Positions 8,514 to 57,000 of a stretch of DNA of 64,000 nucleotides are shown here, piece by piece. Position 1 is the first letter of the stretch. Every line of letters begins with the position of its first letter. The notes under the pieces were generated by a model, which worked only from the letters and a program-made list of their open reading frames with translations, was not told the origin of the DNA and ran no database searches. Where the stretch lies: positions 1 through 64,000 of the forward strand of contig JAHHIE010000025.1 in NCBI GenBank assembly GCA_019358945.1. The letters are read 5' to 3'. The DNA comes from Stenomitos rutilans HA7619-LM2. Lineage in GTDB: Bacteria > Cyanobacteriota > Cyanobacteriia > Leptolyngbyales > Leptolyngbyaceae. The position numbers were made by a program, and so were the translations under genes.

Positions 8514-10355
8514 CTAAATCTTGATTCTGGCAGCAAACGTACCCAAATGCTGCTTTCGCCATTGGGCATCGGCTTTACGATCGGTGCGAATTTCTAGCAC
8601 CCTCATGCCTTTTGTGGGCAAAGGGTTTAAGCGTTGTTCTAACTGTTGCCAGGTTGTGATGCGCTCATATACAACCCCATATGTAGTGCAGAGTTTGGCA
8701 AAGTCGATCGCTTGGGGCGTGGCAAAAAACGCTTCAAAGGGTGGATTATGTTGGGCGATCGGCAGCATCTCGAAAATGCCACCCCCGTTATTGTTAATGA
8801 GGACGATCGTCAAATGCCCAACAAAATGCTGGCGTAAGAGAAACCCATTGGTGTCATGCAGTAGTGCCAGATCGCCTGTGAGCATCACACTGCTTTGCTG
8901 GCGGTGAGCAATCCCCAAAGCGGTGGACAGAGTGCCATCAATACCATTCGCGCCCCGATTGAAGTATGGCAGCACTCTAGAGTTTCCAGGTGCCCAAAAC
9001 CATTCCACATCACGTACAGGCATGCTGCTATTGATAAACAGTGGCGTACCCACAGGCAGCACTTGAGAGAGTAACCAGGCTGCTTTACCTTCAAACAGCC
9101 CGTCTATCTCACGCAGCGTTTGGTCTACGGTTTGCCTGACTTGAGCCTCGATCGTGCGCCACAACGTAAGGTAGGGAGTTTCAATCGCAGCTTGTTGGGA
9201 AAACGACTGGAGGAAAGTGGTGATCGATCGTCGCAGATGCGTCGTGTTGCCATGTAATGGATCGAGGTTTCGACCGTCTGGATCGATAATCCACTGACGC
9301 GGCTGAGTTGTCTCTAACCAGACGCGAAGCTGCTTACTGGTAGGCATTCCACCAATGCGAATGACTGTTTCAGGTGCCAGCTTGTCCGCCAGCTCAGCAT
9401 TTCGCAGGATCAGATCATAGGTCGTAATCAGGTTAGGATTCCAGTCAGCATAGTTGCGCAGGGGCGAAAGCCCTTCCGCTAAAACTGGATAGCCGAGAAC
9501 TTGAGAGAGGTGGGCGATCATACGACAGTAGACCTCCGGAGCCTCAGGTTGGTCAGTGCCAGCGATGATGATGCCGGAGGGGGAGTGAGGAGTAGGGAGT
9601 AGGGAGTAGGGAGTGGGAGGTGGGGAGTGGGGAGTGGGGTATGTCCCTTCGCTGGAGTGTTTTGACTCCTGACTCCTGATTTCTGACTCCTGACTTTTAC
9701 CTTCTCCCTTTTGCCTTTTACCTTCTCCATCCCAATTAGGCGTAACCGAGGCGAAGAAAGCTTCTATGTCGAAGGTAGAGGCAAGGGCTTGGGCTGAAGG
9801 CTCTAGGGTAGGAGCAAGGGGTTCGCGAAAGGGGAGGTTGAGGTGGACGACTCCGGAGACAGGATACAAAGCTCTCTCCCAAGCGTGGATGAGGGTTTGA
9901 CGAAGATAGGCCAGCATCGGCAGCTCCAGGGTTGGCATTGCCAGTTCGGTTTGCCAATTGGGAAAAGTGCCGTATAGTTTGTGCTGGTCGATCGCCTGTC
10001 CGGCATTGCAATCACGCAACTCAGGTGGACGATCGGCCGTCAGGATAAGCAGGGATACTCCGCTTTCTTTCGCCTCAATGACAGCAGGATAGAAGTTTGC
10101 GCCTGCTGTTCCAGACGTACAGATCAGCGCTATTGGACGGTGGCTCTGGCGGGCAAGACCCAGCGCGAAGAAGGATGCCGATCGCTCATCCAGCACGGGT
10201 ATCGCCTCAACGTAAGGATGATTGGCGACCGCGATCGCAAGGGGAGCTGATCGCGAACCTGGACAGACGATCGCAGTCGCCAGTCCCAAGCGATGTAACG
10301 TTTCTACCAGAATAGAAGTCCAGACCAGATTGGTATTCGTAAAATCAATCGGCAT
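8514..10355 (-). CDS. menD: SEPHCHC synthase MenD with an in-frame low-complexity insert
   Basis: 613 residues. This is a thiamine-diphosphate enzyme that joins isochorismate and 2-oxoglutarate (2-succinyl-5-enolpyruvyl-6-hydroxy-3-cyclohexene-1-carboxylate synthase). The N-terminal pyrimidine-binding domain shows [14 protein letters not shown] and the Glu of [15 protein letters not shown]. The C-terminal diphosphate-binding domain has [11 protein letters not shown], about 30 residues before the [14 protein letters not shown] loop. Residues about 207-260 are a Ser/Pro/Thr/His-rich peptide ([14 protein letters not shown], then [13 protein letters not shown]) encoded by intergenic-type repeats. 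It interrupts the link between the first domain and the [14 protein letters not shown] strand. The start ATG lies 2 bases after the menF stop, so the two are probably translationally coupled. Confidence 0.93.
9575..9735. repeat. Repeat-derived insert inside menD
   Basis: The plus strand here reads as near-tandem GGAGTAGGGAGTAGGGAG and TGACTCCTGACTCCTGA words followed by CTTCTCCCTTTTGCC. The same words occur in non-coding DNA at 33500-33570 and 60070-60100. It stays in frame with menD and encodes about 53 residues of low complexity. Confidence 0.75.
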
Positions 10356-14111: not shown

Positions 14112-15944
14112 ATGGGGTGTAAGGGTATGCAACGGAAAACAGCGTTAACTGACCTGAAGCAGCGGTCTGAAGATGACTGGCTTATTGGGTACAACAGCCA
14201 GGAGTTTTTTGTGCTGGCAGAACGCGTATTGGAAGAGTTGCGATCGCACCCTCAACCCGCAACGGCCCTCACCATTCTCTTAGCAGAACGTGATCCCCTT
14301 ACCTTTCTCGCTCACTTCATCGCTGCTTGTGCCGCCAACTGCTGCATTGTTCTTGCCAACCCTGACTGGGTACCAGCCGAATGGGACCAAGTGTTTGAGT
14401 TGGTTCAGCCCGATTTGATCCGGGGCGAGGTAGCGAAGGCAGAGGGCAGGAGGCGGAGGGAAGCGGGGAAAGCGGGGGAAGCAGGGAAAGTCACTCAAAA
14501 CTCTCTAGCAACGCGGCGGAAAGCGCTACTTAAAACATCTCCTACAGAAATGCTGCGCGTTTCTGGAATGCCGAAGGCGGCACACAACTCAAAACTTAGA
14601 ACACCCTATACCCTACACTCCACACCCCACATTTTGATCCCCACAGGAGGTACATCGGGCAACATTCGTTTTGCCATTCACACTTGGGAAACCCTCATGG
14701 CATCTGTTGGCGGCTTTTGCCAATACTTTGAAGTCAAACGGGTAAACTCCTTTTGTGTGCTACCGCTCTACCACGTCAGTGGCTTAATGCAATTTCTGCG
14801 ATCGTTCACGACAGGCGGTCAATTAGTTGTGTTGCCGTTTAAAGCCGTTGAGAGGGGCGATCGTAGCTCCATTAATCCCGAAGATTTTTTTCTATCCCTA
14901 GTGCCAACTCAACTTCAGCGCTTGCTCAATCAGGAGGGGGCGAAGGAGCAAACCGCGAAAACGCAGAGAACTGACGAGGCTTCTTCCACTCAACGCTTTT
15001 TCCCAACGTTCGACTCTCGATTCCCGATTCTCAACGCCTCCATCGCCTGGTTATCTCGTTTCCACACTGTTTTTCTGGGTGGAGCACCAGCCTGGTCAGA
15101 CCTACTAGAACAAGCAAGACACCACCACATTCGACTTGCGCCCACCTACGGCATGACCGAAACCGCATCCCAGATTGCCACGCTCAAACCAGACGACTTC
15201 CTCAAAGGACACACCAACGCTGGACAAGTCTTACCCCACGCCCAGATCACCATCCGCGATCCAGATGGCAACATACTGGCACCTCACCAAATTGGTAACA
15301 TCACTATCCAGGCAAAATCACTCGCGTGGAAGTACTATCCAGGTTCTCCAGGCGATCGTGATCGATTGATCGCAACCCTCACCCCTTCGCCAACCCATAT
15401 GTTATTCCCGCGTCAGATCTCATGTTCGGGGGGTTTGGGGGAGTTAGGCCCCCAAAAAGCGGGGAGCCGGGGGGAAGTCCCCCGGACACAATCTCTAGAC
15501 GAAGCCGAGATATTCGCACACTACCATCCGCAGCGAGAAGAGAAAGAATTTCAACCCGATGATTTAGGCTTTTTTGACTCCAACGGCTACCTGCACATCA
15601 TTGGACGATACAGCGACAAAATGATCACAGGCGGTGAGAATGTGTTTCCAGCAGAGGTCGAAGCCGCCATTCGATCGACTGGCTTAGTCCAAGATATATG
15701 CGTTATCGGGGTGAGCGATCGCCATTGGGGACAAGCCATCACAGCCGTCCATGTTCCCCTCCACGCCAGCAGCACCATCGCAGCACTCCAAGCGGCTTTA
15801 GAGGATAAACTCAGCAAATTCAAACATCCCAAATACTGGGTAGCCGTTGCCCAACTGCCACGCAACGCCCAAGGCAAAGTCAACCGTCTCGAAGTAGAAG
15901 CGATCGCTAACGCTCATGCGTCCACTGTGCCAACCATTGACTAA
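14112..15944 (+). CDS. menE: o-Succinylbenzoate-CoA ligase MenE with three in-frame low-complexity inserts
   Basis: 610 residues, an ANL-family adenylating enzyme that activates o-succinylbenzoate to its CoA thioester. The core motifs are present: PTGGTSGNIRFA (ATP loop), PTYGMTETASQIA, GRYSDKMITGGENVFPAEVE, and the C-terminal QGKVNRLEVEAIA with the catalytic Lys. It is much longer than a usual MenE (about 450-500) because of three foreign-looking segments: about residues 107-175 (GRRRREAGKAGEAGK and following), about 275-305 (KEQTAKTQRTDEAS) and about 417-480 (GGLGELGPQKAGSRGE and following). All keep the frame and fall between conserved blocks. ATG 14112 is used; 14127 is an alternative. 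The 3' end overlaps the convergent thioesterase gene by 38 bases. Confidence 0.9.
   Translation: MGCKGMQRKTALTDLKQRSEDDWLIGYNSQEFFVLAERVLEELRSHPQPATALTILLAERDPLTFLAHFIAACAANCCIVLANPDWVPAEWDQVFELVQPDLIRGEVAKAEGRRRREAGKAGEAGKVTQNSLATRRKALLKTSPTEMLRVSGMPKAAHNSKLRTPYTLHSTPHILIPTGGTSGNIRFAIHTWETLMASVGGFCQYFEVKRVNSFCVLPLYHVSGLMQFLRSFTTGGQLVVLPFKAVERGDRSSINPEDFFLSLVPTQLQRLLNQEGAKEQTAKTQRTDEASSTQRFFPTFDSRFPILNASIAWLSRFHTVFLGGAPAWSDLLEQARHHHIRLAPTYGMTETASQIATLKPDDFLKGHTNAGQVLPHAQITIRDPDGNILAPHQIGNITIQAKSLAWKYYPGSPGDRDRLIATLTPSPTHMLFPRQISCSGGLGELGPQKAGSRGEVPRTQSLDEAEIFAHYHPQREEKEFQPDDLGFFDSNGYLHIIGRYSDKMITGGENVFPAEVEAAIRSTGLVQDICVIGVSDRHWGQAITAVHVPLHASSTIAALQAALEDKLSKFKHPKYWVAVAQLPRNAQGKVNRLEVEAIANAHASTVPTID
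14431..14640. repeat. Repeat-derived insert 1 inside menE
   Basis: Contains GAAGCGGGGAAAGCGGGGGAAGC-type runs and CCCTATACCCTACACTCCACACC, words otherwise seen in the intergenic DNA of this window. It separates VQPDLIRG from the ATP-loop segment ILIPTGGTSGN. The segment also carries ATGCTGCGCG and CCGAAGGCGGC, reminiscent of the MITE cores. Confidence 0.6.
15360..15560. repeat. Repeat-derived insert 3 inside menE
   Basis: Contains a G/C-rich hairpin-like block (GGGGGTTTGGGGGAGTTAG followed by GCCCCCAAAAAGCGGGG and GGGGGAAGTCCCCCGG). This resembles dispersed intergenic repeats that include such G-run palindromes. It encodes about 65 residues between SPGDRD and EKEFQPDDLGFFD, a position where MenE homologues normally run straight through. 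Confidence 0.6.
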
Positions 15945-19915: not shown

Positions 19916-21022
19916 TCACCGATTACTGTGAGCATCATGCACTAATCGCTGCGTGTTCGGCTTTGCCTCATCAACCTTCAAATAATCAAGCGCCATTTGC
20001 AAGGAAGATAGATCAATTTTGAACGGATCTCGAATAGGAGACTTTAGCGTATCTCGAGGACTCGTATCAAAATCTAAGTAGCGCAGTACTTCAGGTGTAA
20101 TCTGACCACGGACGCCACACCAGCTTCCATTCAAAACGGTGCTAAATTGTCGGTAGGTATGAATTGTGAAACTTGGAGAAAATAACTCAATAATGCGTAA
20201 CCCGCTTCCGTTTTTTGCTTGAGGCGCTAATCCCAAACGATTGAAGATAAAGTTTCCAGTCCCAGCACCATGAACTGCAACAACAACTTTTGCATTGCGA
20301 GCAATTGACCATTTTTCACTCGCTGTGAGATCTTCAAAGTAATAAGTCACAAAACCTCTTTCTTCAAGAAACTTGGCAACTTCATTGTTATTGATTAGAT
20401 GACGGCTACCACGTCGGGCGATAAAAATGCGTTCTTCGGTTGATGGGTTATAGCCCTTGAATTCCAAGTTAAACAGTTCCGCTTCAATACCGTATAACCG
20501 ATACCTATAGTCATAAATGGCTTCAACAACATTTCCATAAACTTCAAAATTAGTACAAAGAATCGGAATGTCTAATGTATTAAAAAGATCTTGTGCAAGC
20601 TTTGAAGCATTCTCTTTCAAAATAACATTAATTTCAACGGGCCGCTTTAAGTGTTGTGAGATGAGCTTTTTTGCTAGCAGAACAGGAGTGCAAATATTTT
20701 CAAGTAGGTGAGCAATATTTTTGTCTGTCTCACCACGAGCATCAAAAATAAAATGACCTTCATAGTCAAGAGATTGCTTATGTCGACCTATTTTAATCAT
20801 CTGCTCAAACAGCTTCCACTTCCAGTTAGTAGCTTGTATTTCCCAAGTATATTTTTTAGCAACTTTGATCTCAACCGGAAGTTCTGGCATATCCTCTTGA
20901 TCTGGCAGAAAAATTTGCTCGACTTTAGGTGTATAAACGTCAGAAGCACATGTAGGATAACCAAACATCATCGTGGGTTCTACGCTAATTGATGGCACCA
21001 CAGTACGCAAAGAAAACTGCAT
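19916..21022 (-). CDS. Glycosyltransferase family 61 (DUF563) protein
   Basis: 368 residues. The C-terminal half carries the GT61/DUF563 pattern: ERIFIARRGSRHLINNNEV, EERGFVTYYFEDLTASEKW, AKVVVAVHGAGTGNFIF and LRIIELFSPSF. This resembles capsule and EPS transferases with a Gly-His-Gly-Ala-Gly motif. The N-terminal half is an alpha/beta domain without a clear motif. It is the most downstream gene of the minus-strand polysaccharide set (GT4, flippase, GT4, GT61) but is set apart from it by an intergenic stretch holding a MITE. Base composition is more A/T-rich than the men genes, as often seen in acquired polysaccharide clusters. Confidence 0.78.
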   Translation of the reverse strand: MQFSLRTVVPSISVEPTMMFGYPTCASDVYTPKVEQIFLPDQEDMPELPVEIKVAKKYTWEIQATNWKWKLFEQMIKIGRHKQSLDYEGHFIFDARGETDKNIAHLLENICTPVLLAKKLISQHLKRPVEINVILKENASKLAQDLFNTLDIPILCTNFEVYGNVVEAIYDYRYRLYGIEAELFNLEFKGYNPSTEERIFIARRGSRHLINNNEVAKFLEERGFVTYYFEDLTASEKWSIARNAKVVVAVHGAGTGNFIFNRLGLAPQAKNGSGLRIIELFSPSFTIHTYRQFSTVLNGSWCGVRGQITPEVLRYLDFDTSPRDTLKSPIRDPFKIDLSSLQMALDYLKVDEAKPNTQRLVHDAHSNR

Positions 21023-21180
21023 CTTAATTCCCCTAGATTTAAGTAAAAGCTTTAGTTTGAGTAAAAAATAATAGATTCTTAAACTAGAACATCTCTATAA
21101 TTTTTAATCGAGAGATTAGGCATTTACTAGCATGTATGCGAAAGCTTTATCCAGTAAGCTCGTATGTAAAGATATAGTAG

Positions 21181-21342
21181 GTAACAACTGTCTTTTTCCA
21201 GAACGATTTGCCAGAACTTCTTCAGCACATTGAATCACATGATGAAAGACCTCATCTCAAACGAAAAATTAGCCTATTGCAAACTGATTTCACCCTGCCG
21301 GACCAGTCCTCTGAGATTTACTTAGGAATGAGAATTAAATAA
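21181..21342 (+). pseudogene. Short coding remnant running into a MITE
   Basis: A frame without a start codon reads VTTVFFQNDLPELLQHIESH, then DERPHLKRKISLLQTDF, TLPDQSSEIY, and ends at a TAA supplied by the adjoining repeat (LGMRIK stop). The composition is protein-like, and a stop lies immediately upstream at 21178. It looks like the 3' piece of a gene interrupted by the element at 21322. I do not recognise the family, and chance cannot be excluded for 53 codons. Confidence 0.3.
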
Positions 21343-21466
21343 GATTGGCTTTTGTAGGATGTGTTAGGCGCTAGCCGTAACGCATCACCAACCTCGGAGA
21401 CGATGCGTTACGCGGTGCTAACACATCCTACGCAAATACTCGGTTTTATTAAATCCACGATCCTTA
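21322..21466. repeat. MITE-like palindromic element (family A, copy 2)
   Basis: About 145 bp, almost identical to 497-638. It begins TTAGGAATGAGAATTAAATAA and ends TTTATTAAATCCACGATCCTTA, so its ends form an imperfect inverted repeat with TTAGGA at each tip. The centre is the same GTGTTAGGCG / CGGTGCTAACAC palindrome. A TA dinucleotide is seen at both borders, the target preferred by IS630/Tc1-type elements. Confidence 0.78.
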
Positions 21467-21509
21467 GAAAGTAAAAATTGAGGGCACTGTGAATCAAAGC
21501 TTGAAGCCA

Positions 21510-22844
21510 CTAGGTGCGTGCTGATGTCGTTGGGAAGCCAACCTTACTTCGAGACGAATGTTCCAGTGTTTTTTGATAAAAGTCACTTGATTGCTTGGCA
21601 ACCACTTTTGGAGCAAAACGCATTGCACACTCTTCACCAGCGTGATGGCCGAGTTTAGCTGCTAGCTCCGGGTTGCTTAACAAGCGGTTTATTTGAGCAG
21701 CCAGATCTGTTGCATCCCCGGTTTGAAATAGTAGTCCAGAAACTTCATTTGTGATAATTTCTGGAATGCCTCCTGCACAAGCCCCTACGATCGGGCAACC
21801 CAAACTCAACGCTTCAAGTGCGGTATAGGGGAAGTTATCATAACGCGATGCAACCACTGTAAGTTGAGCTTTCCGGCGCAGCTCATACAAGGCAGAGGGA
21901 GGCTGTTGACCCAACCATTCAATTTGCCCTAATTCTAAGGCGCCGGGCAGTCGATCCTGCACATACTCCTCAAATTTCCAAGCACGACCATTATCATCAA
22001 TGCACCCTCGATCGGGACCTGCAAAAATCAATCGAGTCTTTGGAAATTCTCGTAGAACTTGGGCGAAGGCATCAATCACAAGGTCGCCTCCTTTATGGCG
22101 ATCGAACCGACCAATAAAGGCAATAACATTGGGATCACAATCCTGCGATCGCCATCGCTGCTCTTTTGGAGTACAAGCAATCGGACAGGGAATGACAACT
22201 GCCTTCTCCAAAGGAAGATTATAGTAGCGACGGGTCTGCTCCAAAACATCATGTGAGGGTGCTGTAATTGCAAACGCTTCAGCAATCGCTTTTCCTTCAT
22301 ACTGAACCCGACGCGCAAAAACTTCATCCTCTGGAAACCCCATCACCTTGCCATTCAAAAACCACGGCCCATGAAGACGTATAACAATGGGTATAGAAAG
22401 GCGATCACGCAGAGCACCTGCAAAACCAAAACTCTCCTCTATCTCGAGTAAGTCTAAGCTAGCCCTGGTCGTTAAAGTATGAATGCCTCGGCATAAACCA
22501 CGAACAAAGGAAGCCCGAAAAGCTGATTCTGGTAAGATTCGCTGTTGCAGCGTATCGAACAAACGACCAACAAATTCATTCGATCGACGAGACGACAACT
22601 GAATTACGTCTTGGCTACTAAGACCTAAAGTCTGAGAGCGATCTAAATAAGGCGTTAGAACATACGATTGATGCTCTAGCTCACGCATTCCATCAACCAT
22701 TGTTGCGACATAGGTAACAATCCCATTGGGAAATGTTTGAGGTGGCCAACCCGGTGTGAAATAGGCAACAGACAGACGATCGCTTTTGGGCTTTCCTAAA
22801 GTAATGGGCGTATTTTCTTTATTGCTTAGCATGTTCTCTTGCAT
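21510..22844 (-). CDS. Glycosyltransferase family 4 protein
   Basis: 444 residues, GT-B fold. The N-terminal acceptor domain contains VAYFTPGWPPQTFPNGIVTYV. The C-terminal nucleotide-sugar domain shows VIAFIGRFDRHKGGDLVIDAF, TRLIFAGPDRG, WLGQQPPSALYELRRKAQLTVVAS and the EX7E-like YTALEALSLGCPIVGACAGGIPEII typical of GT4. It is probably a retaining transferase building a cell-surface polysaccharide together with the flippase and second GT4 upstream on the same strand. The ATG at 22844 is followed by a second ATG four codons on (22832). The sugar specificity cannot be inferred. Confidence 0.85.
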   Translation of the reverse strand: MQENMLSNKENTPITLGKPKSDRLSVAYFTPGWPPQTFPNGIVTYVATMVDGMRELEHQSYVLTPYLDRSQTLGLSSQDVIQLSSRRSNEFVGRLFDTLQQRILPESAFRASFVRGLCRGIHTLTTRASLDLLEIEESFGFAGALRDRLSIPIVIRLHGPWFLNGKVMGFPEDEVFARRVQYEGKAIAEAFAITAPSHDVLEQTRRYYNLPLEKAVVIPCPIACTPKEQRWRSQDCDPNVIAFIGRFDRHKGGDLVIDAFAQVLREFPKTRLIFAGPDRGCIDDNGRAWKFEEYVQDRLPGALELGQIEWLGQQPPSALYELRRKAQLTVVASRYDNFPYTALEALSLGCPIVGACAGGIPEIITNEVSGLLFQTGDATDLAAQINRLLSNPELAAKLGHHAGEECAMRFAPKVVAKQSSDFYQKTLEHSSRSKVGFPTTSART

Positions 22845-45542: not shown

Positions 45543-45716
45543 GGGAAGAGTTATGAGTTGTGAGTTATGAGTTGCCGAAAAGGACGCAGAAGGCAGGGGC
45601 AAGGGAGCAGAGGCAGAAGGCAGAGGGCAGAGGGCAGCAGGTAGGAGAGTTATAAGTTTTGAGTTATGAGTTATGAGTGAGAGCTGAGAGCTGAGAGCTG
45701 TCCAGGTTTACGAGCT
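45543..45716. repeat. Low-complexity repeat tract between DUF2330 and RnfD-like genes
   Basis: Built of GGCAGAAGGCAGAGGGCAGA, GAGTTATGAGTTATGAGT and GAGAGCTGAGAGCTGAGAGC words. The same kinds of words are found inside the RnfD-like gene (46395-46580) and inside uvrA (54880-54915). Confidence 0.75.
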
Positions 45717-46751
45717 TTAAGTAACCAGTGCTGTCAATTCTCGCTCTCCCGCCTCCCCTGCCTCCCCTGCCCCCTCTGCTTCTTCCGCTCGACTCCGCCA
45801 AACAAACCGATCGCCCGGAAACACAGCATCAATCAAAATGCTCAACGGTGCCAGCGCGAAGAGTGCCCAGAAAACAGCGGTTGAAAGAAACAGGTAGTTG
45901 CGAAGGAAAAAGGTGAGGAGGGCGATCGCCATTGCCCACAGCACTCGTCCAATCCGAGCATTGGGAATGGTGCGCGGGTCAGTAATCATAAACAGGGAAA
46001 ACATCAGCAGCGAACCACTCATCAGGCGATGCGCCCACACATCCCACGTCCAGCCCAGCAAGATGTTGCGAATCGCTTCTAATACGGCGTAACTACCCAG
46101 AAAGGCGATCGTCGTATCCCACCGTCCCACTCGCCCGACCACCAAACCACCGCAGCTTAAAAACATCAGCGCATACCAGCCTTCTTCGCCCCACTGCCCC
46201 GGTGATACCCAGGCATCCGGCGTGAGGATCAGCGCTGCCACAATGCCAAAGTTGCCGGGGTTGAAGACATGCTTTCCGTTGACCCGAATCAGGAATTTGC
46301 TGGCGATCGCCGCCACACACGCCAAAACCATCGTGCTGTAATGATCGGCGCGAACGAGAATGCTCAGCCCCAGCGAGGTGACAAGGGCACTGGGGAGAGA
46401 GGAGAGAAAGGCAGGGGAAAGGCTAAAGGCTAAAGGCTGAAGGCTGAAGGCTGAGGGATGAAGAATGAGGGATGAGGGATGAAGTGTTGAGTCACTTTCT
46501 GCCTCCTGCCTCTTACCCCCTGTCTCTTGCCTTCTGCCTCCTGCCTTCTGCCTTCTGCCTCCTGCCTCCTGCCTTACAACCGCTACCATCATCCACTGCG
46601 TTATCACACACGTTGCGATCGCCACCGCAATCATGCCGGGTTTCAGCGACCAATCGCGTGTGCCCAACCCCACCACCAGAAAGAGTCCCAAGAAGAGGAT
46701 TTGATACGTGCGGGCATCATCCCATAGACGATCGTCATTCCAGAACAGCAT
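45717..46751 (-). CDS. RnfD/NqrB-like membrane protein with repeat-derived insert
   Basis: 344 residues with about nine hydrophobic helices (LGLFLVVGLGTRDWSL at the start, ALVTSLGLSILVRADHYSTM, VNGKHVFNPGNFGIVAALIL, LMSGSLLMFSLFMITDPRTIP). The GKHVFNPGNFG and MITDPRTIPN blocks fit the NQR2/RnfD family, membrane subunits of sodium-pumping or electron-transport complexes. No other rnf or nqr gene is present, and I do not see the flavin-attachment Ser/Thr-Gly-Ala-Thr motif. Residues about 60-120 (RQEAGGRRQKAGGRRQ, then SALPSA-type Ser/Leu runs) are low-complexity and come from in-frame intergenic-type repeats. The C-terminal tail (EEAEGAGEAGEAGE) also looks repeat-derived. Confidence 0.75.
   Translation of the reverse strand: MLFWNDDRLWDDARTYQILFLGLFLVVGLGTRDWSLKPGMIAVAIATCVITQWMMVAVVRQEAGGRRQKAGGRRQETGGKRQEAESDSTLHPSSLILHPSAFSLQPLAFSLSPAFLSSLPSALVTSLGLSILVRADHYSTMVLACVAAIASKFLIRVNGKHVFNPGNFGIVAALILTPDAWVSPGQWGEEGWYALMFLSCGGLVVGRVGRWDTTIAFLGSYAVLEAIRNILLGWTWDVWAHRLMSGSLLMFSLFMITDPRTIPNARIGRVLWAMAIALLTFFLRNYLFLSTAVFWALFALAPLSILIDAVFPGDRFVWRSRAEEAEGAGEAGEAGERELTALVT
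46395..46580. repeat. Repeat-derived insert inside the RnfD-like gene
   Basis: The plus strand reads AAAGGCTAAAGGCTGAAGG, GAGGGATGAGGGATGAAG and then CTTCTGCCTCCTGCCTTCTG in near-tandem fashion. It is in frame with the minus-strand gene and sits between two membrane-helix regions. Confidence 0.8.
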
Positions 46752-54070: not shown

Positions 54071-57000
54071 ATGCCCGATCGCGCCGACGGTTCTAAGCAA
54101 GCTAACGGTTCTAAGCATCCTATAGCTGAATCGCATGACCATCCCGCCAGTCATGCCATCGCCCAAAATACGATTCGCATTCGAGGCGCACGCCAGCACA
54201 ACCTGAAAGATATTGATCTGGAGCTACCCCGCGATCGCCTGATTGTGTTTACAGGCGTGTCCGGTTCGGGGAAGTCTTCGCTAGCCTTTGACACGATTTT
54301 TGCCGAAGGGCAGCGCCGCTACGTAGAATCACTCAGCGCCTACGCTCGCCAGTTTTTGGGCCAGGTTGATAAACCCGATGTGGACGCGATCGAAGGCTTG
54401 AGTCCGGCCATCTCCATTGACCAAAAATCGACCTCCCATAATCCTCGCTCTACAGTCGGCACCGTCACCGAAATTTACGACTACCTGCGCCTGCTGTACG
54501 GACGGGCAGGCATTCCCCATTGTCCCCACTGCGATCGCTCCATTTCGCCGCAGTCCATCGATCAAATGGTTGATCGAGTGATGGAACTGCCCGATCGCAC
54601 GCGCTTTCAGATTCTCGCGCCCGTCGTCCGAGGCAAGAAAGGGACGCATAAAAAGCAGTTATCCAGTCTGGCCGCTGATGGCTTTGTGCGTGTGCGTATC
54701 AATGGTGAAGTGCGAGAACTCAGCGATGCGATCGAGCTTGACAAAAACCAGGCGCACACGATCGAGATTGTGGTCGATCGTTTGATCAAAAAAGCAGGCA
54801 TTGAAGAACGTCTGACCGACTCTCTCGGCACCTGTCTCAAGCATTCCGGTGGGATTGCAGTTATTGACGTTTTGCCGGACGAGGCAGAGGGCAGAGGGCA
54901 GAAGGCAGAAGGCAACGTAGTCGAACTTCCCACAGGCCAAGCTCTCCGTGCTGCCGAAAAAGGCGGCAACTACGGTATCTCCGACCCCACACCCCACACC
55001 CCACACCCTACTCCCCTCATTTTTTCCGAAAACTTCGCCTGCCCCGAACACGGCGCTGTGATGGAAGAACTGTCCCCCCGCTTGTTTTCCTTTAATTCAC
55101 CCTACGGTGCTTGTCCTGCCTGTCATGGGTTGGGCAGTCATCGCAAGTTCTCCGCCGAACTGGTGGTGCCCAATCCGGATTTGCCCGTGTATGCGGCGAT
55201 CGCGCCCTGGTCAGATAAAGACAATACCTATTACCTGTCGCTGCTTTGTAGCGTCGCCACTGCCTTTGGGTTCGATATTCAAACGCAGTGGAGCCAGTTG
55301 ACAGAGGAACAACGCCACATTTTGCTGCACGGGTCTCAAGAGGCGATCTGGATTGAAACTGATTCTCGCTATCGGCAGAATAAAGGCTACCAGCGTCGCT
55401 ATGAAGGCGCGTTGCCGCTGCTAGAAAAACAATATCAGGAAGCCAATTCAGACGTTTATAAGCAGAAACTAGAGCAATACCTGGTCGATCAACCCTGCGA
55501 AGACTGCAAGGGCAAACGGCTGAAGCCAGAAGCACTCTCTGTCAAGTTGGGACAGTTTCGCATTGCTGATTTGACGAGCGTTTCAATTCGAGACTGTTTA
55601 AATCAGGTGAACAGCATTGAGTTGAGCCAACGACAGGCACAGATTGCCGATCTGGTGCTGCGTGAAATCAAAGCACGCTTGCAATTTCTCTTGGACGTGG
55701 GGCTAGATTATCTCACCTTGAACCGGACGGCTATGACGCTTTCGGGTGGCGAGGCGCAACGTATTCGTTTGGCAACCCAAATTGGCTCTGGACTAACGGG
55801 CGTTCTCTACGTCCTGGATGAGCCGAGCATTGGGCTGCATCAGCGTGACAATGCCCGGTTGCTCAAAACCCTGCATCGGCTCCGCAATTTAGGCAATACG
55901 CTGATTGTGGTGGAGCATGATGAAGAAACGATTCGCGCTGCCGATTATGTGGTGGATATTGGTCCTGGTGCAGGAGTGCACGGTGGGCGTATTGTGTCTC
56001 AAGGTAGCCTGCAAGCGATGCTGGATGCTCCCGATTCGTTGACAGGCGCTTACTTGTCAGGTCGAGAAGTGATCGCAACACCTGCTCAGCGTCGATCGGG
56101 TAATGGTCGCGCCCTCAAAATCCGCAATGCTTACCGTAATAATCTGAAGCAAATTGATGTCGAAATTCCGCTGGGCAAATTGGTGTCTGTGACAGGCGTT
56201 TCAGGTTCGGGTAAATCCACGCTCATTAACGAACTGCTCTATCCGGCGCTGCAAAACCACTTTGGCAGCAAGATACCCCAGCCCAAGGAAATGGAGCCGA
56301 TCGCAGGCTTGAGTGCATTAGACAAAGCGATCGTCATTGACCAATCTCCGATCGGGCGAACCCCTCGTTCCAATCCCGCGACCTATACGGGCACCTTTGA
56401 CATCATTCGGGATGTCTTTGCCGAAACGATCGAAGCCAAAGCCAGAGGATACAAGCCCGGTCAATTCTCCTTTAACGTTAAAGGGGGACGCTGTGAAGCC
56501 TGCGGTGGTCAGGGCGTCAACGTCATTGAAATGAACTTTTTGCCCGATGTCTATGTGCAGTGCGAAGTCTGCAAAGGTGCCCGCTATAACCGCGAAACGC
56601 TTCAGGTGAAGTTCAAAGGCAAATCGATCGCGGATGTGCTAGGCATGACCGTTGATGAAGCGCTGGAGTTTTGCAAAAATATTCCTCAAGCCGCAGCACG
56701 CTTGCAAACATTAGTAGATGTCGGTCTAGGCTACGTTCGCTTGGGACAAACCGCACCCACTCTTTCCGGTGGTGAAGCCCAACGGGTCAAGCTGGCAACG
56801 GAACTCTCTCGCCGCGCGACAGGCAAAACCCTTTACCTCATCGACGAACCCACAACAGGTCTCTCCTTTTATGACGTTCACAAGCTTTTAGACGTGCTGC
56901 AACGTCTGGTAGACAAAGGCAACACGGTTTTAGTGATCGAGCATAATCTGGATGTCATCCGCTGCTCTGATTGGGTGATTGACTTGGGGCCAGAGGGGGG

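What the first reader, a model, noticed from the sequence alone, without database searches (positions are those of the whole stretch)
9575..9735. Intergenic-type repeat carried in frame inside menD
Residues about 207-260 of MenD ([14 protein letters not shown], then [13 protein letters not shown]) are translated from the same GGAGTAGGGAGTAGG / TGACTCCTGACTCC words that fill non-coding DNA in this genome. It falls at a domain border and keeps the frame, so an essential enzyme has gained a disordered loop from 'junk' repeats. Similar insertions in menE, menC, uvrA and an RnfD-like gene suggest a general process that favours protein-border insertion of repeats without breaking reading frames.
Basis: partly seen in the sequence, partly recalled or inferred. 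Interest (0 to 1): 0.72.

Follow-up and report, generated by a model that had tools for sequence, protein, structure and literature searches.

The report
Heptamer-repeat islands translated inside protein loops
In this cyanobacterium and its sister species, 7-letter DNA repeats that mostly fill non-coding DNA also sit in frame inside loops of MenD, UvrA and dozens of other enzymes, and each species fills the same loop with different repeat words, so "junk" DNA appears to keep rewriting the disordered parts of ordinary proteins.

Summary
MenD (8514-10355, minus strand) carries two period-7 arrays in frame at 9579-9643 and 9663-9695, in the linker between its first two domains. Period 7 is specific: 207 arrays in 1.63 Mb of this genome, against 0-3 for periods 5, 8 and 10. 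Forty of 1,514 called genes hold arrays; coding density is about one eighth of intergenic. Across the seven genomes of the genus (Stenomitos group), loops of MenD, UvrA, RecJ, AnmK, RsmG, squalene-hopene cyclase, Mfd and an RnfD-like protein hold arrays at the same sites with different words. Words are shared between loci within a species more than between species (p about 0.002; flanking DNA shows nothing). In paired arrays the G-rich arm precedes the C-rich arm (28:0). A 7-nt unit reads as one heptapeptide in any phase, so a stop-free word is open in every frame. Best reading: heptamer (STRR-type) islands spread between loci and survive in genes only where in frame, stop-free and in a tolerant loop. 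Targeting to borders or frames is not shown: two orthologues have a frame break at an array, and menC is not a convincing case. Word-swapping at fixed coding sites is the surprising part.

The parts
8514..10355 (-). menD, 613 aa (P0001)
   Evidence: Pfam TPP_enzyme_N 15-126, TPP_enzyme_M_2 from 260, TPP_enzyme_C 475-577; PDB MenD hits to 1e-109; MenD found in 57 of 58 genomes
9579..9643 (-). C-rich sense arm: ACTCCCC/ACTCCCT heptamers, reads [21 protein letters not shown] (residues 238-260)
   Evidence: (TRF 9576-9639, period 7, 9.3 copies)
9663..9695 (-). G-rich sense arm: GGAGTCA heptamers, reads [11 protein letters not shown] (residues 221-232)
   Evidence: (TRF 9663-9695, period 7, 4.7 copies)
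9694..9726 (-). degenerate array (GGAGAAGGTAAAAGGCAAAAGG in sense) completing the MenD island; residues about 207-220
   Evidence: (period 14 and 21 rows within 9663-9726)
54879..54917 (+). uvrA loop 1: GGCAGAG/GGCAGAA heptamers in frame (residues 270-283)
   Evidence: orthologous loop with other words in congeners
54977..55018 (+). uvrA loop 2: CCCCACA heptamers in frame (residues 303-317)
46524..46577 (-). RnfD-like gene, G-rich sense arm (GGCAGGA/GGCAGAA), residues 59-77
   Evidence: (PF03116)
46410..46485 (-). RnfD-like gene, C-rich sense arm (CATCCCT/CAGCCTT), residues 89-115
14504..14528 (+). small dispersed element (TCTAGC...GCGCTA, 25-nt form) nested in an AAAACTC stretch inside menE
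14603..14631 (+). menE C-rich array, reads PYTLHSTPH (residues 159-169)
45608..45700 (.). composite intergenic heptamer island (reference for the non-coding form)

Best explanation
The MenD insert is one copy of a genome-wide family of heptanucleotide tandem-repeat islands. A typical two-arm island is a G-rich array followed by a C-rich array, often with AAAACTC units and sometimes a nested small dispersed element. Islands spread and exchange words between loci (inferred; ectopic recombination or template switching is most likely). In genes they persist only when total length keeps the frame, the stop-free strand is the sense strand, and the site is a tolerant loop (selection, inferred from the pattern). 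A 7-nt unit reads as one heptapeptide in all three phases (shown by the sequence), so any stop-free word stays open wherever it lands and however the array is phased. The insert is therefore most likely translated as a disordered linker with no function of its own (inferred).
For: In-frame arrays in MenD and 39 other called genes. Period-7 specificity. The same words occur in intergenic arrays. Orthologous loops in the genus carry different words at the same place (MenD, UvrA, RsmG/AnmK/RecJ/SHC, PurL/Mfd, RnfD-like). Pooled lag-7 identity of 53 loop inserts is 0.556, against 0.30-0.33 at lags other than 7 and 14. Islands of different genes in one species share words more than between species (0.123 against 0.073, permutation p about 0.002), while four flanking-DNA controls give p 0.33-0.89. 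Mean insert identity between species is 45-70% by gene where 5' flanks are 75-88%. G-arm precedes C-arm in 17:0 coding and 11:0 non-coding pairs, and in halves of the loop inserts 36:2. A loop in frame and without stops was recovered from all 53 ortholog sites tried. Array midpoints fall in Pfam stretches 4 times of 52, 26.8 expected. AlphaFold gives residues 206-254 pLDDT below 50 and no secondary structure.
Against: No donor-recipient pair was traced, so movement between loci rests on the species-shared words. No expression or proteome data were available. The Pfam test is partly circular, because HMMER splits a domain at an insert and only best stretches were used. The genes were chosen because they hold arrays in G000. 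The AlphaFold model is shallow (mean pLDDT 65).
Confidence: 0.72

Rival explanations
1. The arrays arise in place: short seeds in tolerant linkers expand by replication slippage and drift by point mutation, with no movement between loci.
For: Words form mutational series inside single arrays (GGAGGCA, GGAGCCA, GGAGTCA at C13:42250-42327); tandem arrays slip readily; the MenD linker is length-variable in all cyanobacteria compared.
Against: Words are shared between unlinked genes within a species beyond the between-species level; fixed G-then-C order of two arms; whole-array difference at near-constant length in Mfd (GGTCAGC, GGGAGTC, GGGGAGT, CTCACAC in different species).
Confidence: 0.18
2. 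A dedicated process targets insertion to protein domain borders and preserves the frame.
For: Arrays avoid Pfam stretches; all 53 orthologous loops of the main set are in frame and open.
Against: Coding density is about one eighth of intergenic, as a survival filter would give; several inserts lie within one enzyme domain (AnmK, RsmG, SHC); PurL of G005 and MenD of G010 have a frame break at a heptamer array; no shared insertion target in the flanks was seen by eye.
Confidence: 0.04
3. The insert acts at the RNA or DNA level (hairpin, quadruplex, bypass or removal before translation) and its translation is incidental.
For: G-rich then C-rich arm order suits a hairpin, and some islands fold better than shuffles (SHC in G001, G002, G005, z -2.7 to -4.2); related G-rich heptamers form quadruplexes in vitro (PMC4692102).
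Against: Median fold z over 37 inserts is about 0; coding arms are not complementary words; antisense frames of the inserts are open only 19-25% of the time while the coding frame is open at all 53 sites, which a removed or bypassed segment would not need.
Confidence: 0.06

Closest known systems
Heptanucleotide tandem repeats of cyanobacteria (STRR type; Calothrix PCC 7601 case cited in PMC4692102)
   Same: 7-nt tandem units, several words per genome, mostly non-coding, cyanobacterial
   Different: here in frame in dozens of protein genes, with species-specific replacement of words at fixed coding sites
P6b stem-loop of the tRNA-Leu(UAA) intron in Nostoc (PMC4476775)
   Same: 7-nt repeats on both sides of a stem; one repeat class replaced by another as a whole region, repeatedly
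   Different: an RNA stem in one intron, not a translated loop; here many protein genes
Heptameric G-rich repeats GGGNATC / GGGGAYT in Xanthomonas and Nostoc (PMC4692102)
   Same: dispersed heptamers, over-represented in non-coding DNA
   Different: that study reports under-representation in coding regions; in-frame loop insertion is not described in the passages read
Rickettsia palindromic elements inserted in genes (own knowledge, papers not read here)
   Same: repeat DNA kept in frame within protein genes, at tolerated sites
   Different: those are families of homologous palindromes of about 100-150 nt; here the islands share grammar (period 7, G-then-C) and not one sequence
Small dispersed repeats (SDR) of Nostoc punctiforme (Elhai 2008; reference seen in PMC3116915, content from memory)
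   Same: tiny elements embedded in heptameric repeats, like the TCTAGC...GCGCTA element found here
   Different: core pattern found in 7 of 7 genus members and 0 of 32 other genomes; several copies are inside genes

Membership tests
STRR (short tandemly repeated repetitive heptamers) | tandem units of exactly 7 nt, many per genome | tested here: met
   207 period-7 arrays in 1.63 Mb against 0-3 at periods 5, 8, 10
STRR (short tandemly repeated repetitive heptamers) | mainly non-coding location | tested here: met
   403 arrays per Mb intergenic against 49 per Mb coding
STRR (short tandemly repeated repetitive heptamers) | same words as the published STRR families | not tested
   the original papers were not read; word lists were not compared
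Rickettsia palindromic element (RPE) type | in-frame presence in conserved protein genes | tested here: met
   MenD, UvrA, RecJ, Mfd, PriA, AnmK and others
Rickettsia palindromic element (RPE) type | members homologous to one consensus sequence, palindromic | tested here: not met
   arms of coding islands are not complementary (overlap 0.005) and words differ between copies
MITE / miniature transposon | terminal inverted repeats and target-site duplication | tested here: inconclusive
   no inverted repeat in the MenD region; the RecJ site without array in G004 shows no obvious duplication by eye
SDR-type element (for the nested TCTAGC...GCGCTA unit) | under 60 nt, dispersed, embedded in heptamer arrays | tested here: met
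   49-nt and about 25-nt forms flanked by AAAACTC units; 22 copies in this genome by exact pattern
SDR-type element (for the nested TCTAGC...GCGCTA unit) | sequence match to a published SDR family | not tested

The most novel reading that the evidence does not exclude
An active genome-wide exchange process replaces whole heptamer arrays at fixed sites, including inside protein genes, so that the linkers of many conserved enzymes evolve in concert with the species' current repeat vocabulary instead of with their own gene.
Probability: 0.4. Interest if true: 0.75.

Novelty: new variant of a known kind. Interest (0 to 1): 0.58.

Why it matters
It shows repeat DNA supplying fast-changing, apparently translated loops to DNA-repair and metabolic enzymes (UvrA, Mfd, RecJ, PriA, MenD) in a free-living bacterium, in about 2.6% of called genes. 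It gives a simple reason why a repeat of period 7 is tolerated in genes: any stop-free word is open in all three frames. It also offers a test system for how non-coding repeats move, because coding copies must keep the frame and sit at fixed sites, so each replacement leaves a readable record. Phylogenetic and structural work on these proteins should mask such loops.

Tried and rejected
Hairpin as the selected unit: rejected as a general account, median fold z about 0. Conserved-domain explanation for the insert: rejected, the MenD linker does not align between relatives and falls outside the aligned stretches of PDB MenDs. menC as a further case: not supported. Plasmid match: one weak 74% match in Kovacikia minuta only. 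The RnfD and G003 RsmG rows picked a neighbouring ORF; RnfD was redone by BLAST and RsmG by anchored motifs. Possible slippage frameshifts in MenD of G010 and PurL of G005: seen, not separable from sequencing error.

Full report
What is there. The menD gene on the minus strand (8514-10355) encodes a 613-residue MenD with all three TPP-enzyme domains and clear PDB homologues. Between domains I and II it carries two tandem arrays of 7-nt units, read in frame: GGAGTCA units (9663-9695, [11 protein letters not shown]) and then ACTCCCC/ACTCCCT units (9579-9643, [21 protein letters not shown]), preceded by a degenerate purine-rich stretch (9694-9726). AlphaFold2 on a 10-sequence alignment gives residues 206-254 pLDDT below 50 and no secondary structure, between a helix ending at 201 and a strand starting at 261; the model as a whole is only moderate (mean pLDDT 65).

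Is it more than chance. Period 7 stands alone. The window has 16 such arrays and none at periods 5, 6, 8, 11 or 12, two at 9. In 1.63 Mb of the same genome there are 207 period-7 arrays against 0-3 at periods 5, 8 and 10. With a simple gene caller (1,514 genes, 82% coding), 66 arrays fall in 40 genes, 116 are intergenic and 25 touch gene ends. Density is 49 per Mb in coding and 403 per Mb in intergenic DNA.

What the relatives show. The genome belongs to the genus that includes Stenomitos frigidus ULC18 (G001) and Leptolyngbya sp. FACHB-321 (G003), identified by matching contig lengths. MenD was found in 57 of 58 genomes. The linker between FFASV and GIIIAG is highly variable in length among cyanobacteria. 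In most congeners it is built of heptamers too, but of other words: GGCAGAA/GGGGACA then ACCCTAT in G006, GGTCAGC then TCACTCC in G002, CCATCAC in G003, and the repeated peptide SGQRSAV in G001. UvrA, with proteins 91-97% identical in the genus, shows the same in two loops. RsmG, AnmK (two loops), RecJ and squalene-hopene cyclase, PurL and Mfd and the RnfD-like protein repeat the pattern. In Mfd a loop of about 12 residues is GGTCAGC, GGGAGTC, GGGGAGT, CTCACAC or CTCACCC in different species at nearly constant length. RecJ of G004 has no array.

Quantified. Over 53 orthologous loop inserts at eight sites, identity at lag 7 is 0.556 (0.491 at lag 14) against 0.30-0.33 at the other lags up to 15. 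Mean insert identity between species is 45-70% by gene, where 200 bp of 5' flank is 75-88% identical. Cyclic 7-mer profiles of inserts in different genes are more alike within a species (0.123) than between species (0.073), p about 0.002 by shuffling species labels within genes; four sets of flanking segments of equal length give no effect (p 0.33-0.89). This is concerted evolution of words across loci. The inserts come from genes known to hold arrays in G000, which does not create the species effect but limits statements about rates.

Grammar of the islands. Where two arrays of opposite skew lie within 150 bp, the G-rich one comes first in 17 of 17 coding pairs and 11 of 11 non-coding pairs. 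The order is its own reverse complement, so it is a property of the DNA and not of transcription. Coding arms are not complementary words, and inserts do not fold better than dinucleotide shuffles overall (median z about 0), although the AAGGATA...TATCCTT form in squalene-hopene cyclase of three species does.

Why genes tolerate it. Three 7-nt units make 21 nt, so a run reads as one heptapeptide whatever the phase; a word without stops in that cycle is open in all three frames of its strand. The commonest sense-strand words in genes are AAAACTC, ACTCCCC, AAGGCAG, AGGAGTC and AGCGGTC, all stop-free, while the reverse strands of AAAACTC, AGGAGTC and AGCGGTC contain a stop. Off-frame sense readings of the inserts are open in about half of cases and antisense readings in 19-25%. 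Intergenic arrays are open in 43% of frames. A filter requiring a frame-keeping length (about one third) and an open frame (0.43) would by itself pass about 14% of random insertions, close to the observed coding to intergenic ratio of 12%; this is rough arithmetic, not a fitted model, and ignores loss of copies that damage folding.

Do arrays ever break genes. All 53 loops of the main set are in frame and open. Outside that set, PurL of G005 is frame-shifted exactly at its CTCACTC array, and MenD of G010 is split into two frames at a CGCTATC-type linker. G005 is a fragmented metagenome assembly, and sequencing error cannot be excluded in either. If real, they show that arrays do break frames, which speaks against a frame-sparing process.

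Where in proteins. Of 52 arrays in 30 Pfam-scanned genes, 4 have their midpoint in a matched stretch, 26.8 expected if uniform. The test is partly circular because HMMER breaks matches at inserts. AnmK, RsmG and squalene-hopene cyclase show inserts inside a single enzyme domain, so the sites are loops in general and not domain borders in particular.

A second passenger. A small element, 49 nt (TCTAGCGTTCGCG...GCGGCGCAAAGCGCTA) or about 25 nt, sits inside AAAACTC arrays, including in-frame copies in rsmG, priA, anmK and, in a diverged form, menE of the window. Its core pattern occurs in all 7 genus members (22 copies here, 28 in G001) and in none of 32 other genomes. It resembles the SDR elements that Elhai and colleagues described as embedded in heptameric repeats (reference in PMC3116915; content from memory).

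Known and new. Heptamer repeats in cyanobacteria are known, and one study reports them under-represented in coding regions (PMC4692102). Whole-region replacement of one heptamer class by another is known in the tRNA-Leu intron of Nostoc (PMC4476775). In-frame repeat insertion in genes is known in kind from Rickettsia (own knowledge). I found no report of heptamer islands translated in dozens of conserved proteins with species-specific word replacement, but the library is limited to open papers and I ran few searches.

Limits. Movement between loci is inferred from shared words; no donor was traced. No transcript or protein data were available. MenD essentiality is doubtful: phylloquinone is reported as not essential under photoautotrophic conditions in Synechocystis 6803 (PMC7133116). 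Genes were called with a home-made method, and 22% of the genome was sampled, from contigs that carry a GGAGTAGGGAGTAGG match, which may raise the density slightly. A 102-kb duplicated stretch in contig C70 holds no arrays and so does not inflate the counts.

Noticed in passing
window 14504-14528; also G000 C39:131655-131703, C93:125195-125243, C70:251305-251353: A genus-specific small dispersed element (TCTAGC...GCGCTA, about 25 or 49 nt) nested precisely in AAAACTC heptamer arrays, several copies in frame inside genes.
   Followed up: partly
L038 1400-1620 (G010 MenD linker); L212 (G005 PurL): MenD of G010 and PurL of G005 have a frame break exactly at a heptamer array; a slip by one 7-nt unit would shift the frame, but sequencing error cannot be excluded. 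G041 and G013 MenD also show frame breaks near the linker.
   Followed up: partly
G005 contigs C2 and C324: The MenD gene of G005 is broken between contigs at the linker (residues 207 and 254), so draft assemblies may lose these islands.
   Followed up: no
G000 C13:19263-20015 and 20103-21743: Two divergent neighbouring genes share the same stretch with a nested element and heptamers, suggesting an inverted duplication.
   Followed up: no
G000 C70, about 8-110 kb and 110-212 kb: About 102 kb is repeated nearly identically at an offset of 102,201 bases and holds no heptamer arrays at all; it may be a plasmid assembled more than once or a real duplication, and its lack of arrays contrasts with the rest of the genome.
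   Followed up: partly
L213-L219, Mfd residues about 112-142: A second Mfd loop is an AAGGATA/TATCCTT-type hairpin in G000, G003 and G004 but a long island, mostly with the nested element, in G001, G002, G005 and G006.
   Followed up: partly
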